Shown piece by piece: positions 1 to 5,591 of a stretch of 37,024 nt of DNA. Source of the stretch: Synechococcus sp. UW140. Lineage in GTDB: Bacteria; Cyanobacteriota; Cyanobacteriia; PCC-6307; Cyanobiaceae. The position numbers and the translations under genes are program-made. The notes beneath the pieces are model-generated. The model searched no databases, had not been told where the DNA came from, and worked only from the letters and a program-made list of their open reading frames with translations. The stretch lies in assembly GCA_945877115.1 (NCBI GenBank), contig CAMCQR010000019.1, forward strand, positions 1 through 37,024. Direction: 5' to 3'. Every line of letters starts with the position of its first letter. Position 1 is the first letter of the stretch.

Positions 1-1052
1 ACCACGGCGAAGCGCAGCACCTCCAGGGGGTCGAAATCACCGCCCGGAAACCAGGCGTCCTGGACGTTGTCGCCCCCCACCGCCACCACCACGCCACTGT
101 TCTGCAGCTGGCGGATGGGGGCCTGGGCCCGCCGCGATGGCGTGGCCTCGGCGCGGCGATCCAGCAGCCAGAGGTTGGTGCTCGGCAGGGCCACCACCCC
201 CAGGGCCAACCGGGCCATGCGATCCACCAGCCGCTGGCAGGCCCGGGGCGGCAACAGGGCCATGCTGCAGGCGTGGCTACAGACCACCGGCACCTGCAAG
301 CGCTGACGCTCCAGCGCCTCGCATACCAGGCGCACGCCCCGGCCCCGGTGGCTGACGCCCTCATCGAGGTGCAGGTCGACGCCGCAGCCCAGCTGGTCCG
401 CCAACCGCAACGTCTCCAGCACCGCCTGGCCATCGCCGGGGCCGATGCCGAAGGGGGCGCCGATCACGCCCCCGAGCCGGCCGCCCCGGTCCGCCAGCCA
501 GCTTGCCTGGAGGCGGCCCTGCTCCGTGCCCCAGTGGTGGATCGGCACCAATCCCACCAGCTGCAGATCCAGCCGATCGGCCCAACGGCGCCGCAGGCCG
601 TCGAGCACCTCCAGGCTGAGGTCGCCCCGCTCGCCGCTGCAGTCGACATGGCTGCGGATCGCCCGCAGCCCCTGACGCCAGGCCCGCATCAGGGCCCGCT
701 CGGCCCGCTGCTCCAGGTCCTCGGCGGTGCGGCAGCTGGTTTCGGCCTGGTTGGCCTCCAGGGCCGCCGCGATGGTGCCGTCGCGATTGGGGAAACGGGC
801 CGCACTGAAGGCCTTGTCCAGGTGGGCGTGGGGCTCCACCAAGGGGGTCAGGGCCAGGGGAGGCCCCGCCACCGTGTCGGCCTCGAACTCGGGCTCGGGC
901 TCCGACTCGGGCGCCGGATGCAGGGCCCGGATGCGCCCCGATTCGATCTCCAGCACCACCGACACCAAGCCCTCGGCATCGCCTTGGGGCAGTCGCCCAT
1001 CCCGGCCATCCAGCAGCATCCGGGGGATGCGCAGCGGCGGCAACAGGCTCAA
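1..1052 (-). CDS. CodA-like amidohydrolase (cytosine deaminase family), C-terminus outside the window
   Basis: Metal-dependent amidohydrolase of the cytosine deaminase / N-isopropylammelide-hydrolase branch; the true substrate is unknown. Seen in order: metal-binding EPHAHLDKAF near residue 70, RSHVDCSGE, HLDEGVSH, VVCSHACSM, and GGDNVQDAWFPGGDFDPLEV close to the left edge. These match the HxH, HLDE, SH and D metal/substrate positions of E. coli CodA. About 350 residues are present and the last part of the barrel is missing. The start is ambiguous: a TTG at 1052 overlaps the stop of the upstream DUF4359 gene and gives an N-terminus MSLLPPLRIPRMLL; an ATG at 1019 is the alternative. I prefer 1052 because the residues before the ATG look like the usual first beta strand. 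Probably co-transcribed with the gene at 1049-1501. Confidence 0.8.
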   Translation of the reverse strand, partial: MSLLPPLRIPRMLLDGRDGRLPQGDAEGLVSVVLEIESGRIRALHPAPESEPEPEFEADTVAGPPLALTPLVEPHAHLDKAFSAARFPNRDGTIAAALEANQAETSCRTAEDLEQRAERALMRAWRQGLRAIRSHVDCSGERGDLSLEVLDGLRRRWADRLDLQLVGLVPIHHWGTEQGRLQASWLADRGGRLGGVIGAPFGIGPGDGQAVLETLRLADQLGCGVDLHLDEGVSHRGRGVRLVCEALERQRLQVPVVCSHACSMALLPPRACQRLVDRMARLALGVVALPSTNLWLLDRRAEATPSRRAQAPIRQLQNSGVVVAVGGDNVQDAWFPGGDFDPLEVLRFAV

Positions 1053-1501
1053 GGCTCCAGCCCCTGCTGGCGTCCGGTGCGGATCACCACGAAGCAACCC
1101 GCCGCCGCCAAGGTGGTGGCCTTGTAGCGGGGAATCTGCCATTGGGCCAGCTGCTGGCCCCCCAGGTTGGTGGTGTAAAGGCTGAACAGGCCGAAATTGC
1201 GACGGATCGTGCCCTGGCGCGCCCAGGCCCCCAGGGGCGTCCGTTGGGAGCGCACCAGGCCCGGGCAGTCATGCACCACAACCCTCATCATCATCGGCAA
1301 TCCACCCTGATCGCATAGATCCCGCGTCAACAGATCCACCAACCGATCAGCGGCGAAGTCCTCAAAGGCGGCGGGGCCCGGATTGGTGAGCACCAGACCG
1401 GCGGCCGCCACCGAGGCCGCCAGGGCACCCATCGCCAAAGCCGCAAAGGGAACAGACAAAAGGGAAGGGAGCAGCACGAGGGGGCCCGGCCACCATGGCA
1501 A
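1049..1501 (-). CDS. DUF4359 family protein, membrane-anchored
   Basis: A 150-residue protein of a family I recognise from cyanobacteria as DUF4359; function unknown. The N-terminal ~45 residues are hydrophobic and would form a signal anchor, followed by the typical family pattern TNPGPAAFEDFAADRLVDLL, a Cys-containing segment (DLCDQGG and HDCPG), and RRNFGLFSLYTT. The soluble part probably lies outside the cytoplasmic membrane. An internal ATG at 1432 would give a shorter 127-residue protein with a more usual single-helix anchor, so the start is uncertain. It overlaps the CodA-like gene downstream by a few bases, which suggests translational coupling, and its 5' end faces the tRNA-His gene on the other strand. 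Confidence 0.7.
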   Translation of the reverse strand: MPWWPGPLVLLPSLLSVPFAALAMGALAASVAAAGLVLTNPGPAAFEDFAADRLVDLLTRDLCDQGGLPMMMRVVVHDCPGLVRSQRTPLGAWARQGTIRRNFGLFSLYTTNLGGQQLAQWQIPRYKATTLAAAGCFVVIRTGRQQGLEP

Positions 1502-1537: not shown

Positions 1538-1611
1538 GGCGGGCGTCGCCAAGTGGTTAAGGCAGTGGCTTGTGGCGCCACCATTCGGGGGTTCAAGTCC
1601 CCTCGCTCGCC
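1538..1611 (+). tRNA. trnH: tRNA-His (anticodon GUG)
   Basis: A complete cloverleaf can be drawn. The acceptor stem GCGGGCG at 1539-1545 pairs with CGCTCGC at 1604-1610 (one G-U). The anticodon stem-loop is GTGGC-TTGTGGC-GCCAC with anticodon GTG, and the T-arm GGGGG-TTCAAGT-CCCCT is at 1587-1603. Position 1538 is a G that can pair with C at 1611, which is the extra G-1:C73 pair specific to tRNA-His. The 3' CCA is not encoded and must be added by nucleotidyltransferase. Confidence 0.95.
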
Positions 1612-1617
1612 CTGATT

Positions 1618-1845: not shown

Positions 1846-2970
1846 TCACCCCATCCCCATAGCCAGCAATACCTCCCACAGCCCCTCTCCCCCCTGTCGC
1901 ACCGGATCCAAGCAGGGCAAACCCGTGCTGGCTGCCGTGGCGGCGAGGGCCTGCTGCGCCGCAGCCCCATCCAGATGGGCGGTGTTGAGGGCGATGGCCC
2001 GCACCCGGGGCGGTGGGGTTGGGGCCGATGCCGCTGCGGCCGGCCGGCCCAGGGCCGCCAGCCGTTCGACCGCATCGATCACCGCGGTCAGGGGCGGCAT
2101 AGCCACCTCGGCATGGTTGCGGATGCTGGTCTGGCCGGCCCGGTGCACCAGCAGCAGGTCCGTGGGCTGGCTACCCCGGATCAAGGGCAACGTGGCCGTG
2201 GAGCCGGGGTGGCAAATAGATCCCTGGCCCTCCACCAGCAGCCAGGTGTGGGGCCCCGCCGGACCCGCCGAGTCAGAGGGCTCGGCCGGGTCCGCCGCCG
2301 CCAGCACCGCCTGCTCCACCGCACCGGCTGCGTAATCCACCCGCACCGCATCCAAAGCCACGCCCTGCCCACTGATCAACAGACCCGCCTGGCCGGTGCC
2401 GATAAAGCGCGCATCCAGCCCCCGGCGCCCGGCCGCCGCCAGCAGTTCGAGGCAGGCGCTCATCTTGCCCACCGCCATGTCCGTGCCCACCGCCAGCAGC
2501 CGCCGGCAGGGCAGGGACGCCGCCCGGCCCGAGGCCACCGGCAGGTCAGCCGGCTCCTGGCGCAGGTCCCAGATCCAGGCACCGTCCTGGCGGCTGGCCG
2601 CCAGCTGGGGGTCATCCCCCAGGCGGGTGTGCAGGCCGCTGGCCGCCGAGCATCCAGCCCCCAGGGCCACAAGCAGGTCGGCGCGCAGGGCCGCGGGCAA
2701 GCGCCCGCCGGAGGGGGCCAGGCCCACCACCGCCACAGGCCTGGCAGCGCTGGCGGGCAGCAGGGCCAAGGCCGCCTGCATCGAGGCCAGCACCGGCACC
2801 GGCCGGGCAATCCCCGTCACGGTCTCCAGGTCGGCGCCGGCATGGGCCGGATCGATCACCGCCACGATCGGTCCGCGGCGATAGCGCAACATCGCCAAAC
2901 CCGTCTTGCCACCCAGGTTGTCGAGACCGCCGTGCAGCAACAGCACCACCGGGTCATCAGGGCCGAGCAT
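1846..2970 (-). CDS. DUF1611 P-loop protein, DgcN-like
   Basis: A 374-residue DUF1611 family protein. It has an N-terminal Rossmann-like half (VVLLLHGGLDNLGGKTGLA, then AVIDPAHAG) and a C-terminal P-loop NTPase-like half with GTDMAVGKMSA, the family Walker A, followed by RFIGTGQAGLLISG and VEGQGSICHPGS. One subfamily, DgcN, is a D-glutamate N-acetyltransferase in marine Proteobacteria and haloarchaea; whether this protein does that is inference. The start ATG at 2970 lies inside the end of the epimerase gene (14-nt overlap), which implies translational coupling. A longer in-frame reading to 3114 exists but would lie entirely inside the epimerase gene and is not needed. The C-terminus reads PVRQGGEGLWEVLLAMGMG. 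Confidence 0.85.
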   Translation of the reverse strand: MLGPDDPVVLLLHGGLDNLGGKTGLAMLRYRRGPIVAVIDPAHAGADLETVTGIARPVPVLASMQAALALLPASAARPVAVVGLAPSGGRLPAALRADLLVALGAGCSAASGLHTRLGDDPQLAASRQDGAWIWDLRQEPADLPVASGRAASLPCRRLLAVGTDMAVGKMSACLELLAAAGRRGLDARFIGTGQAGLLISGQGVALDAVRVDYAAGAVEQAVLAAADPAEPSDSAGPAGPHTWLLVEGQGSICHPGSTATLPLIRGSQPTDLLLVHRAGQTSIRNHAEVAMPPLTAVIDAVERLAALGRPAAAASAPTPPPRVRAIALNTAHLDGAAAQQALAATAASTGLPCLDPVRQGGEGLWEVLLAMGMG

Positions 2971-4105
2971 GGGGGCCTCCAGCAGCAGCAGGACCAAGGG
3001 CCAGGGCCTCGGCCAGGGGAGTGTCGGGCCGCAGGCGCACCCCCAGGCCGGCCCCGTCCCCGGCCCGCAGCCCATCGCCTTGCACCAGTTGGGGGCCCTC
3101 GAAGGGATCGTCAACCAGGTTGAGGTGGCTGTCCAAATCGGGCCAGGTGACCAGGGGCAGCAGCTGGGCGGCGGCCCCGTTGAGCAGGGCGCTGTCGGAA
3201 TAGCAGCCCAGCATCACCTCCAGCCCCAGCCGCTGGGCCGCCCGGGCCATCAGCAGCGCCTCCGACAGCCCGCCGCTCTTGAGCAGCTTGATGTTGATCC
3301 CGTCCACAAAGGGAGCCAGGCGCACCACATCCGCCAGGTTCCAGCAACTTTCATCCGCCACCAAGGCGATCGGGCAATCCAGCTCCAGGGCCGCGAACTG
3401 GGCCGCATCGGCCTCAGGATCCAGCAGGGGTGGCAGGGGCTGCTCCACCAGTACCACTCCCGCATCCGCCAGCCCAGACACCATCGCGCGAGCCGTCTCC
3501 AGGCTCCAGCCGCCATTGACATCGACCTGCAGTTCGGCCGCTGCGCCGCCCAGCCGCTGCTGCCGTGCCTCGATGGCAGCGGCCACCGCCCCCACCAGGG
3601 CCCGGTCGTGATCCAGCCCCTCGGGGCTGCCCAGCTTGAGCTTGATGCGGCTGGCCGGAAGCTGTTCCCACCAGCGCTCCAGCCGCTCCAGAACGGCCGG
3701 TACCGCCCCCAGCCCCAAGGTGACGCTGGTGGCCACGGCACGCCGCGTCTCCAGTCCCCACAAACAGGCCACGGGCCTGCCGAGCCGCTGGCCCCACCAA
3801 TCGTGCAGGGCCAGATCGACGGCGCAGCGGGCGGGGGGGGAGAGGCTGGCCAACAGGGGCTCAAGGGCCTGCAGGGGTTCGGGGGACAGGTCCGCCAGCT
3901 GGGGCATCAAGGCTTGCAGTTCGGCGGCGACCTGGGCCGTTTCGTAGCGGCGATGGCCCGTCTCGAAGCCGCCGGTTTCGCCCCAGCCCGTCGTGCCCTC
4001 GGCTTCAATAACGAACAAAAGGTGGTCTACCGCCTTGGTGGTGCCCCGGCTGATCGCCAGCGGCACGGCCTTGGTGAGGCCAAACCGGTGCAGGCTGCAG
4101 CGCAT
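2957..4105 (-). CDS. Enolase-superfamily dipeptide epimerase / N-acyl amino acid racemase (DgcA-like)
   Basis: A 382-residue member of the muconate-lactonizing subgroup of the enolase superfamily. Catalytic landmarks in order: KLKLGS with the KxK base, DVNGGWS (metal Asp), VEQPL (metal Glu), VADES (metal Asp), and [11 protein letters not shown] with the second catalytic Lys. C-terminal GCYSDSALL and DLDSHLNL resemble the substrate-binding motifs of L-Ala-D/L-Glu epimerases. Likely substrates are L-Ala-D-Glu from peptidoglycan turnover, or N-acetyl-D-glutamate if it is DgcA. I chose the ATG at 4105 because the family N-terminus ([17 protein letters not shown]) begins right after it; 4132 is an alternative, and longer readings run into the divergent miaB start. 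It is the first gene of a two-gene operon with the DUF1611 gene. Confidence 0.88.
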
Positions 4106-4178: not shown

Positions 4179-5591
4179 ATGACCGCCACCCTCAGCGACG
4201 CCACCAGCGCCCCTGGAACTCCCCCCACCCCCGAACGCGGGCGGGGGGAGTACTGGATCACCACCTTCGGCTGCCAGATGAACAAGGCGGACTCGGAGCG
4301 CATGGCCGGCATCCTCGAAGCCATGGGCTATCGGGCCGGCCAGGACGAACACAGCGCCGATCTGGTCCTCTACAACACCTGTTCAATCCGCGACAACGCC
4401 GAGCAAAAGGTCTACAGCTATCTAGGGCGCCAGGCGCAACGCAAACGGGACAATCCCCATCTCACCCTGGTGGTGGCCGGATGCGTGGCCCAGCAGGAGG
4501 GTGAATCCCTGCTGCGCCGCGTACCGGAACTGGATCTGGTGATGGGGCCCCAGCACGCCAACCGCCTCGAGAGCCTGCTGATCCGGGTCGAGAATGGCCA
4601 GCAGGTGGTCGCCACCGACGAGCACCAGATCTTGGAGGACATCACCACGGCCCGCCGGGACAGCCGCGTCTGCGCCTGGGTGAATGTGATCTACGGCTGC
4701 AACGAACGCTGCACCTATTGCGTCGTGCCGGCGGTGCGCGGGCGCGAACAATCGCGGCTGCCCGGGGCCATTCGCCTCGAGATGGAGGGTCTGGCGGCCC
4801 AGGGCTACCGGGAGGTCACCCTGCTGGGCCAGAACATCGATGCCTACGGCCGCGACCTGCCGGGCATCACACCGGAGGGCCGCCGCCAGCACACCCTCAC
4901 TGACCTGCTGCGCGAAGTGCACGCGGTGGACGGCATCGAACGGCTGCGCTTTGCCACCAGCCATCCCCGCTATTTCACCGACCGCCTGATCGACGCCTGC
5001 GCCGAGTTGCCCAAGGTGTGCGAGCACTTCCACATCCCCTTCCAGAGTGGCGACAACGAGGTGCTCAAGGCCATGGCCCGCGGCTACACCATCGAGCGCT
5101 ATCGCCGCATCCTGGAGCGCATCCGCGAGCGCATGCCCGACGCCTCGATCAGCGCCGATGTGATCGTCGGTTTTCCTGGCGAAACCGACGCCCAGTTCCA
5201 GCGCACCGCCGATTTGGTCGGAGAGATCGGTTTTGATCTGGTCAACACGGCGGCCTATTCCCCCCGCCCCAACACCCCCGCCGCCGATTGGCCAGATCAG
5301 CTCCCAGATGCGGTCAAGGTTGAACGGCTGGCCGCCCTGAATGGGGTGGTCGAAGCCACCGCCCGCCAGCGCAGTGCCCGCTTTGTCGGACGGCTGGAGC
5401 AGGTGCTGGTGGAGGGGGTCAATCCCCGCAATCCCCTCCAGCTGATGGGACGCACCCGCAGCAACCGGCTCACCTTTTTTGCCGCCGAGGCTGCTGGGGG
5501 TCACCGCTGGGGGATAGGAGATCTGGTGCCGGTGCGCATCGAAACAGCCCGGCCCTTTTCGCTCAGTGGCCAGGCCGAGGGGCCCGTCTGA
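4179..5591 (+). CDS. miaB: tRNA-2-methylthio-N6-dimethylallyladenosine synthase MiaB
   Basis: Radical-SAM methylthiotransferase that adds the 2-methylthio group to i6A37 of tRNAs reading UNN codons. 470 residues, the normal length. The N-terminal UPF0004 domain has its three cluster cysteines in [17 protein letters not shown] and VVAGCVAQQ. The radical-SAM motif [15 protein letters not shown] follows near residue 180, and a C-terminal TRAM domain starts near residue 400 ([13 protein letters not shown]). NTCSIR with GREQSR is more typical of MiaB than of RimO or MtaB. The start ATG at 4179 gives a short low-complexity leader before [10 protein letters not shown]; an out-of-frame ATG lies at 4171. 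It is divergent from the epimerase gene with a 73-nt gap, and no clear terminator follows. Confidence 0.96.

What the first reader, a model, noticed from the sequence alone, without database searches (positions are those of the whole stretch)
1846..4105. Overlapping epimerase-DUF1611 pair resembles the DgcA/DgcN D-glutamate pathway
The enolase-superfamily gene and the DUF1611 gene overlap by 14 nt, so they are almost certainly coupled. In marine Proteobacteria and haloarchaea the same pair acts on D-glutamate: DgcN (a DUF1611 protein) N-acetylates it and DgcA (previously annotated as dipeptide epimerase) isomerises N-acetyl-D-Glu to the L form. A cyanobacterial version would be a way to recover D-Glu from peptidoglycan or seawater/freshwater dissolved D-amino acids. 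The default annotation (L-Ala-D/L-Glu epimerase plus unknown) would miss this. The D-Glu assignment is inference.
Basis: partly seen in the sequence, partly recalled or inferred. Interest (0 to 1): 0.62.

Follow-up and report, generated by a model that had tools for sequence, protein, structure and literature searches.

The report
Cyanobacterial racemase and acetyltransferase-like gene pair
Two overlapping cyanobacterial genes that are kept or lost together look like a distant version of a marine bacterial pathway that tags the mirror-image amino acid D-glutamate and flips it to the usable form, but what they act on is unproven.

Summary
In detail: an enolase-superfamily epimerase gene (4105-2957, minus) overlaps a DUF1611 gene (2970-1846, minus) by 14 nt. 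Among 292 genomes of the phylum each gene is present in 83 (weak rows dropped) and both in 82; they are same-strand neighbours in 76 of the 82. In picocyanobacteria they sit between tRNA-His and miaB, and are cleanly absent there in 9 of 9 pair-less relatives examined. Functional coupling is close to certain.

The D-glutamate reading is partly supported. DgcA and DgcN are the best NCBIfam models, at 150 of 400 and 207 of 480 bits. Both proteins form cyanobacterial clades outside DgcA and DgcN. The epimerase pocket loop (GCYSDS) matches neither DgcA nor YcjG; DUF1611 shares D212, T330 and R358 with DgcN but not its R280, C165 and Y171.

Best reading: a DgcN/DgcA-like two-step route, D-Glu to N-acetyl-L-Glu at about even odds. 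New variant of a known kind; not a member of DgcN or DgcA by the tests run.

The parts
2957..4105 (-). Enolase-superfamily (MR/MLE) epimerase gene, 382 aa, first gene of the pair
   Evidence: Pfam MR_MLE_N and MR_MLE_C; NCBIfam best DgcA 150.5 bits, cut-off 400; catalytic KxK, D/E/D, second lysine and DxD kept
1846..2970 (-). DUF1611 gene, 374 aa, second gene of the pair; DgcN-like
   Evidence: Pfam DUF1611_N and DUF1611_C; NCBIfam DgcN 207.2 bits, cut-off 480; 2obn, 7xrj and 2g0t by sequence and by fold
2957..2970 (-). 14-nt overlap of the two coding sequences
   Evidence: near-zero spacing recurs in other cyanobacteria
1539..1612 (+). tRNA-His, one edge of the cassette
   Evidence: ARAGORN; same place in L124-L136 and straight upstream of miaB in 9 of 9 pair-less relatives examined
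4179..5591 (+). miaB, divergent, the other edge of the cassette
   Evidence: Pfam and NCBIfam MiaB; within 200 nt of the epimerase match in 11 of 13 related loci, about 2.0-2.3 kb away in L125 and L135

Best explanation
The two genes encode one two-step route. The DUF1611 protein N-acylates, most likely acetylates from acetyl-CoA, an acidic D-amino acid, most likely D-glutamate. The enolase-superfamily enzyme then epimerises the N-acyl product to the L form, using its paired lysines and a metal ion. In cyanobacteria the product N-acetyl-L-glutamate could enter arginine synthesis directly. Shown here: the pair, its coupling, intact catalytic residues, and kinship to DgcN and DgcA. Inferred: the acetyl-CoA donor, D-Glu as acceptor, the direction, and the fate of the product.
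For: Both genes present in 82 of 292 genomes, each alone in 1 after weak rows were dropped; neighbours in 76 of 82; joint decay in one remnant; DgcA and DgcN are the best NCBIfam models; fold match to DgcN 7xrj; D212, S251, T330 and R358 shared with DgcN and absent from the PLP-paired DUF1611 type; DUF1611 genes lie beside a DgcA-type epimerase in 33 of 41 Pseudomonadota cases; dgcN is described as key to a racemisation route for acidic D-amino acids and their amides (PMC12363236, passages); Synechocystis uses ArgJ and lacks ArgA and ArgE (PMC7133116, passages), and ArgJ pieces are in the window's genome on two contigs.
Against: Scores far below both equivalog cut-offs; separate clades; reversed gene order; epimerase loop GCYSDS unlike DgcA's GCM.[GC]SSL; DgcN residues C165, Y171, H265, D270 and R280 replaced. 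The DxD motif, which I recall as the dipeptide-ammonium site, is kept, but it is kept in DgcA too. The best fold matches of the epimerase are dipeptide epimerases bound to L-Ala-D-Glu. No biochemical evidence for any cyanobacterial member was found.
Confidence: 0.5

Rival explanations
1. Same two-step logic, different substrate: DUF1611 acylates another D-amino acid or uses another acyl donor, and the cyanobacterial epimerase is tuned to that product; the altered pocket loops reflect this.
For: Third type of epimerase loop, in 44 of 45 distinct cyanobacterial sequences as GCYSDS or GCYSDG; several positions near-fixed in DgcN and in cyanobacteria but to different residues; DUF1611 is also paired with PLP racemases elsewhere, so its acceptor range is probably broader than D-Glu.
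Against: R358, T330 and D212 are shared with DgcN; the SRG arginine of the first loop is common to cyanobacterial proteins, DgcA and YcjG, although 3iji, which binds L-Ala-D-Glu, lacks it at that column.
Confidence: 0.28
2. Ordinary peptidoglycan recycling: the epimerase is an L-Ala-D/L-Glu epimerase and DUF1611 has a separate or supporting role.
For: Nearest solved folds are dipeptide epimerases, the top two with L-Ala-D-Glu bound; DxD motif kept; tree place near 3iji (98/92); in picocyanobacteria the pair lies next to miaB, ddl, ftsQ and ftsZ.
Against: An ordinary dipeptide epimerase would not need DUF1611, yet the two co-occur almost perfectly in the phylum, while in Pseudomonadota DgcA-model epimerases do occur without DUF1611 in 29 of 63 genomes. 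ddl and ftsZ run on the other strand and are not neighbours in most other cyanobacterial loci compared.
Confidence: 0.15
3. DUF1611 is a nucleotide-dependent ligase (BioD/CobB-like) that makes an amide or dipeptide from D-Glu, which the epimerase then inverts.
For: P-loop GTDMAVGKMS and weak fold matches to ATP-using BioD and a cobyrinic acid diamide synthase; DxD motif kept in the epimerase.
Against: The residue after the P-loop lysine is M or R (K in L123), not the serine or threonine of a usual Walker A motif (motif recalled). DgcN, with the same P-loop, is deposited as an N-acetyltransferase.
Confidence: 0.05

Closest known systems
dgcR-dgcN-dgcA of Pseudoalteromonas sp. CF6-2 (NZ_CP091443.1)
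   Same: A DUF1611 gene overlapping an MR/MLE epimerase gene (7 nt there); same domain make-up; catalytic residues shared
   Different: Order reversed; 27% (epimerase) and 30% (DUF1611) identity to the window proteins over aligned columns; separate clades; a LysR regulator gene (dgcR) precedes dgcN there, while both window edges are tRNA-His and miaB
DgcN-25328 crystal structure 7xrj
   Same: Fold (Foldseek E 4.8e-19); 35% identity; core motifs
   Different: C165, Y171, D270 and R280 of DgcN are M, S, T and Q in the window protein (window numbering)
Anabaena variabilis Ava_3511, structure 2obn
   Same: Same cyanobacterial DUF1611 clade, 56% identity
   Different: Deposited as hypothetical / DUF1611 family protein, without an assigned function
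Bacteroides thetaiotaomicron dipeptide epimerase 3iji/3ijq
   Same: Best fold and tree neighbour among solved epimerases
   Different: 30% identity; different specificity loop, ETSCAISAA
E. coli YcjG, L-Ala-D/L-Glu epimerase, 1jpd
   Same: Catalytic residues, SRG/ARG loop arginine and DxD motif
   Different: 31% identity; sits with DgcA, not with the cyanobacterial clade
DUF1611 plus PLP Ala_racemase_N pairs (e.g. L119, L120, L137-L143)
   Same: A DUF1611 protein abutting an amino-acid racemase gene on the same strand
   Different: Unrelated racemase fold; separate DUF1611 clade; lacks D212, T330 and R358

Membership tests
DgcN (NCBIfam NF041892, equivalog) | Score over the curated cut-off of 480 bits | tested here: not met
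   207.2 bits
DgcN (NCBIfam NF041892, equivalog) | DUF1611_N plus DUF1611_C architecture and the DgcN fold | tested here: met
   (model mean pLDDT 71)
DgcN (NCBIfam NF041892, equivalog) | Falls inside the DgcN clade | tested here: not met
   Cyanobacterial clade of 29 rows (SH-aLRT 99) apart from a DgcN clade of 17 rows (100); quick tree, no bootstrap
DgcN (NCBIfam NF041892, equivalog) | Conserved residues of DgcN | tested here: inconclusive
   D212, S251, T330, R358 kept; C165, Y171, H265, D270, R280 replaced; the published active-site residues could not be read
DgcN (NCBIfam NF041892, equivalog) | Acetyl-CoA-dependent N-acetylation of D-Glu | not testable with these tools
   needs an enzyme assay
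DgcA (NCBIfam NF042940, equivalog) | Score over the curated cut-off of 400 bits | tested here: not met
   150.5 bits, still the best model; YcjG 105.0 and muconate cycloisomerase 103.5 follow
DgcA (NCBIfam NF042940, equivalog) | One clade with DgcA to the exclusion of YcjG | tested here: not met
   AU p 3e-76 (group named after the tree was seen); with YcjG and 4gfi included p 0.074, not rejected
DgcA (NCBIfam NF042940, equivalog) | Specificity loop GCM.[GC]SSL | tested here: not met
   15 of 15 DgcA rows have it; the window has GCYSDSALL
DgcA (NCBIfam NF042940, equivalog) | Racemisation of N-acetyl-D-Glu | not testable with these tools
   needs an enzyme assay
L-Ala-D/L-Glu epimerase YcjG (NCBIfam NF011708) | Score over the curated cut-off of 343 bits | tested here: not met
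   105.0 bits
L-Ala-D/L-Glu epimerase YcjG (NCBIfam NF011708) | DxD motif (recalled as the dipeptide-ammonium site) | tested here: met
   DLDSH in the window; kept in DgcA too, so not diagnostic
MR/MLE enolase-superfamily epimerase | Domains, two catalytic lysines, three metal ligands | tested here: met
dgcN-dgcA operon type | DUF1611 gene upstream of the epimerase gene | tested here: not met
   Epimerase first in the window and in 71 of 76 neighbouring pairs of the phylum; DUF1611 first in the 5 of family f38 and in CF6-2

The most novel reading that the evidence does not exclude
DUF1611 proteins are a general racemase-partner family: stereoselective N-acyltransferases built on a P-loop (BioD-like) scaffold, recruited separately by at least three branches of enolase-superfamily epimerases and by PLP racemases. 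In cyanobacteria the pair turns D-Glu from cell-wall turnover into N-acetyl-L-Glu, which primes the cyclic ArgJ arginine route and so links wall recycling to nitrogen storage.
Probability: 0.2. Interest if true: 0.68.

Novelty: new variant of a known kind. Interest (0 to 1): 0.5.

Why it matters
Both genes are present in 82 of 292 sampled genomes of the phylum. The curated DgcN and DgcA models do not reach the window's proteins, so that annotation route would not name the pathway here. A relative of the DUF1611 protein from Anabaena has had a solved structure since 2007 without an assigned function in its deposit, and in the passages I saw a review of Synechocystis metabolism mentions D-Glu only as the product of MurI and a part of peptidoglycan (PMC7133116). 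If the pair makes N-acetyl-L-Glu, it would give cyanobacteria a way to recover D-Glu and feed arginine synthesis without ArgA. The recurrent pairing of DUF1611 with racemases of two unrelated folds makes the family's function directly testable.

Tried and rejected
2) DxD motif as a discriminator between dipeptide and N-acyl substrates: kept in DgcA, YcjG and the cyanobacterial proteins alike.
3) The ddl/ftsQ/ftsZ neighbourhood as evidence for a wall role: recurs in the picocyanobacterial loci and in L155, not in most other cyanobacterial loci compared, and those genes run on the other strand.
4) The D-Glu pathway paper (10.1038/s41396-023-01364-6) is not held. Its content, including the GNAT claim for DgcN, is recalled; I saw only its citation. 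DgcN active-site residues could therefore not be checked.
5) Papers: DUF1611 occurs in 2 held papers, seen as listings only, both on Dickeya. Dipeptide epimerase plus cyanobacteria: 3 papers, of which I saw passages of one (PMC3605383): it says AEE genes exist in cyanobacteria and gives nothing on DUF1611. PMC10845958 and PMC11747546: passages only. PMC9620832 and PMC13338154: passages only, nothing on this pair. Synechococcus plus D-glutamate plus uptake: 1 paper, passages seen.
6) A test that all DUF1611-linked epimerases form one clade was started and did not finish. The DUF1611 tree is the quick version; the careful one did not finish.
7) Own-genome search for M20 peptidases found two over the cut-off; whether either is an N-acetyl-L-Glu deacylase was not followed up.

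Rows dropped before counts: nine short weak DUF1611 rows (E 5.5e-5 to 6.9e-4; six of them over Pfam's cut-off only with neighbouring pieces) and the second fragment of G174; this takes 91 genomes to 83. None of the 8 dropped genomes has the epimerase, so the count kept whole would be 82 of 91. In one search, four weak genomes (G047, G016, G119, G151; E 1.2e-13 to 9.5e-11) were dropped, 87 to 83; none has DUF1611, so kept whole 82 of 87. The 83 include one split DUF1611 gene (G174) and one remnant (G266). In one search nine weak rows were dropped, 50 to 41. The Fisher value takes no account of phylogeny.

Full report
What is there. On the minus strand an enolase-superfamily gene (4105-2957, 382 aa) is followed by a DUF1611 gene (2970-1846, 374 aa); the overlap is 14 nt. 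Pfam confirms MR_MLE_N/C and DUF1611_N/C. To the right miaB, ddl, an FtsQ-type POTRA protein and ftsZ run on the plus strand. To the left lie tRNA-His (1539-1612) and a cytosine-deaminase-like amidohydrolase.

The coupling is real. I searched 292 genomes of the window's phylum for DUF1611 and for relatives of the epimerase. After weak rows were dropped each is in 83 genomes and both in 82 (with all rows kept, 82 of 91 and 82 of 87). The Fisher value is 7e-71, not corrected for phylogeny. In 76 of the 82 the genes are same-strand neighbours (match ends at most 2,395 nt apart): epimerase first in 71, DUF1611 first in 5, all five in one family (f38) outside the window's class. In six genomes the two are present but unlinked. 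The one DUF1611-only genome (G211) carries a paralogue that sits next to a PLP racemase. The one epimerase-only genome (G053) has a protein with a different specificity loop.

The pair is a cassette in picocyanobacteria. In the window and in 12 related loci (L124-L135) tRNA-His follows DUF1611 closely, and L136 holds a remnant at the same place. miaB lies within 200 nt of the epimerase match in 11 of these 13 loci and about 2.0-2.3 kb away in L125 and L135. I examined 9 of the 20 pair-less same-family genomes listed: in 9 of 9 tRNA-His lies 75-380 nt from the miaB match with no room for the pair. L136 (G266) shows a decayed copy in which the epimerase N-terminus reads in frame into the DUF1611 C-terminus. 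Pair-less genomes share genus codes g5 and g9 with pair-bearing ones, so both genes come or go together over short distances. I read this as repeated joint loss; the direction is not proven.

What the epimerase is. It keeps KxK, the three metal ligands, the second lysine and DxD; regular expressions for all but the second lysine match 45 of 45 distinct cyanobacterial relatives. NCBIfam ranks DgcA first (150.5 bits, cut-off 400), then YcjG (105.0, cut-off 343) and muconate cycloisomerase (103.5). By predicted structure (mean pLDDT 75, residues 328-382 below 50) the closest entries are 3iji and 3ijq, a Bacteroides dipeptide epimerase with L-Ala-D-Glu. In a 59-row tree the cyanobacterial proteins form their own clade (100/100), near f38 (87/75) and 3iji with G053 (98/92), outside a 17-row clade (100/100) that holds CF6-2 DgcA, other DgcA, 4gfi and YcjG. 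A clade of DgcA plus cyanobacterial proteins without YcjG is rejected (AU p 3e-76); one with YcjG and 4gfi included is not (p 0.074). The specificity loop reads GCYSDS or GCYSDG in 44 of 45 distinct cyanobacterial proteins and GCM.[GC]SSL in 15 of 15 DgcA rows; YcjG and 3iji share AISAA there. The window's pocket is a third type.

What the DUF1611 protein is. Its solved relatives are 2obn (Anabaena, 56% identity), 7xrj (deposited as N-acetyltransferase DgcN-25328, 35%) and 2g0t (31%). After these the fold search gives only weak matches, many of them P-loop proteins (adenylate kinase, BioD, MinD, nitrogenase Fe protein, a cobyrinic acid diamide synthase) (model mean pLDDT 71). Apart from 7xrj none of the 50 listed entries is described as an acetyltransferase. 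The label GNAT for DgcN, which I recall and could not read, is not what this fold search suggests. I compared 120 DgcN-type, 55 cyanobacterial and 12 PLP-paired rows (some genes fetched twice). 26 positions are common to the three; G88, L159, V161, D212, S251, L263, T330, A338 and R358 are shared by DgcN and cyanobacteria and not by the PLP-paired type; C165, Y171, H265, D270 and R280 of DgcN are among 20 listed positions that differ in cyanobacteria. That supports kinship, perhaps in the acceptor region, but not identity.

DUF1611 as a racemase partner. In the Rhodobacterales-dominated set, 78 of 80 loci have an epimerase hit beside DgcN; the other two contigs end there. In 249 Pseudomonadota genomes (centred on a DgcN-bearing genome) 41 full-length DUF1611 genes lie beside a DgcA-type epimerase in 33 cases, beside a PLP Ala_racemase_N-type protein in 5, and beside neither in 3; for one of these three a DgcA homologue is about 4 kb away. 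Of 12 plasmid loci fetched, 6 have an epimerase neighbour, 2 a PLP racemase and 4 neither (L115, L117, L121, L123). The PLP pairing also holds for 7 of 7 non-epimerase DUF1611 paralogues in the cyanobacterial sample (one partner, in L139, was Pfam-scanned). The DUF1611-adjacent epimerases of haloarchaea (L114, L116, L118) fall in yet another epimerase branch. Against a strict rule, the DgcA model passes its cut-off without a strong DUF1611 in 29 of 63 Pseudomonadota genomes, so the tight dependence seen in cyanobacteria is not general.

Mechanism. The simplest account is that DUF1611 acylates the amino group of a D-amino acid and the epimerase inverts the N-acyl product, as in DgcN/DgcA. [quoted passage not shown] Synechocystis makes arginine with a bifunctional ArgJ and lacks ArgA and ArgE (PMC7133116, passages); the window's genome holds two ArgJ pieces at contig positions C80 and C48, neither over the cut-off alone. 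So N-acetyl-L-Glu could be used without deacylation; that step is inference. I put 0.5 on D-Glu or a close acidic relative as substrate, 0.28 on the same logic with another substrate or donor, 0.15 on ordinary peptidoglycan-dipeptide epimerisation with a separate role for DUF1611, and 0.05 on a ligase.

Verdict. Observation confirmed; interpretation partly supported; a new variant of a known kind. By the score and clade tests the window proteins should not be filed as DgcN or DgcA, but they very likely work in a similar two-step manner.

Noticed in passing
L137-L143 (cyanobacteria), L119, L120 (Aliiroseovarius, Ruegeria plasmids), L197 and L201-L204 (Pseudomonadota): A second DUF1611 type abuts a PLP alanine-racemase-like gene (PF01168) on the same strand, DUF1611 first. 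It is a separate DUF1611 clade and may be a second racemase-partner system.
   Followed up: partly
L136 6637-7548 (genome G266): In-frame remnant: the epimerase N-terminus runs into the DUF1611 C-terminus and on through tRNA-His, i.e. one internal deletion removed parts of both genes.
   Followed up: yes
window 1846-2970 and DUF1611 family: DUF1611_C shows weak fold similarity to P-loop proteins such as BioD and a cobyrinic acid diamide synthase, with M or R (K in L123) after the P-loop lysine. How such a scaffold would carry acetyl-CoA chemistry is open.
   Followed up: partly
L116 2501-3637 and 4807-5862 (Haladaptatus halobius plasmid): A DUF1611 gene flanked on both sides by genes annotated dipeptide epimerase, which fall apart in the tree.
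   Followed up: no
window 3-1142 (-): Cytosine-deaminase-like amidohydrolase, below every curated cut-off of NCBIfam shown; relatives recur in all 13 picocyanobacterial loci L124-L136.
   Followed up: no
L113 4913-5773 (Ruegeria sp. TM1040): A D-amino-acid transaminase gene follows dgcN and a gene annotated DgcA on the megaplasmid.
   Followed up: no
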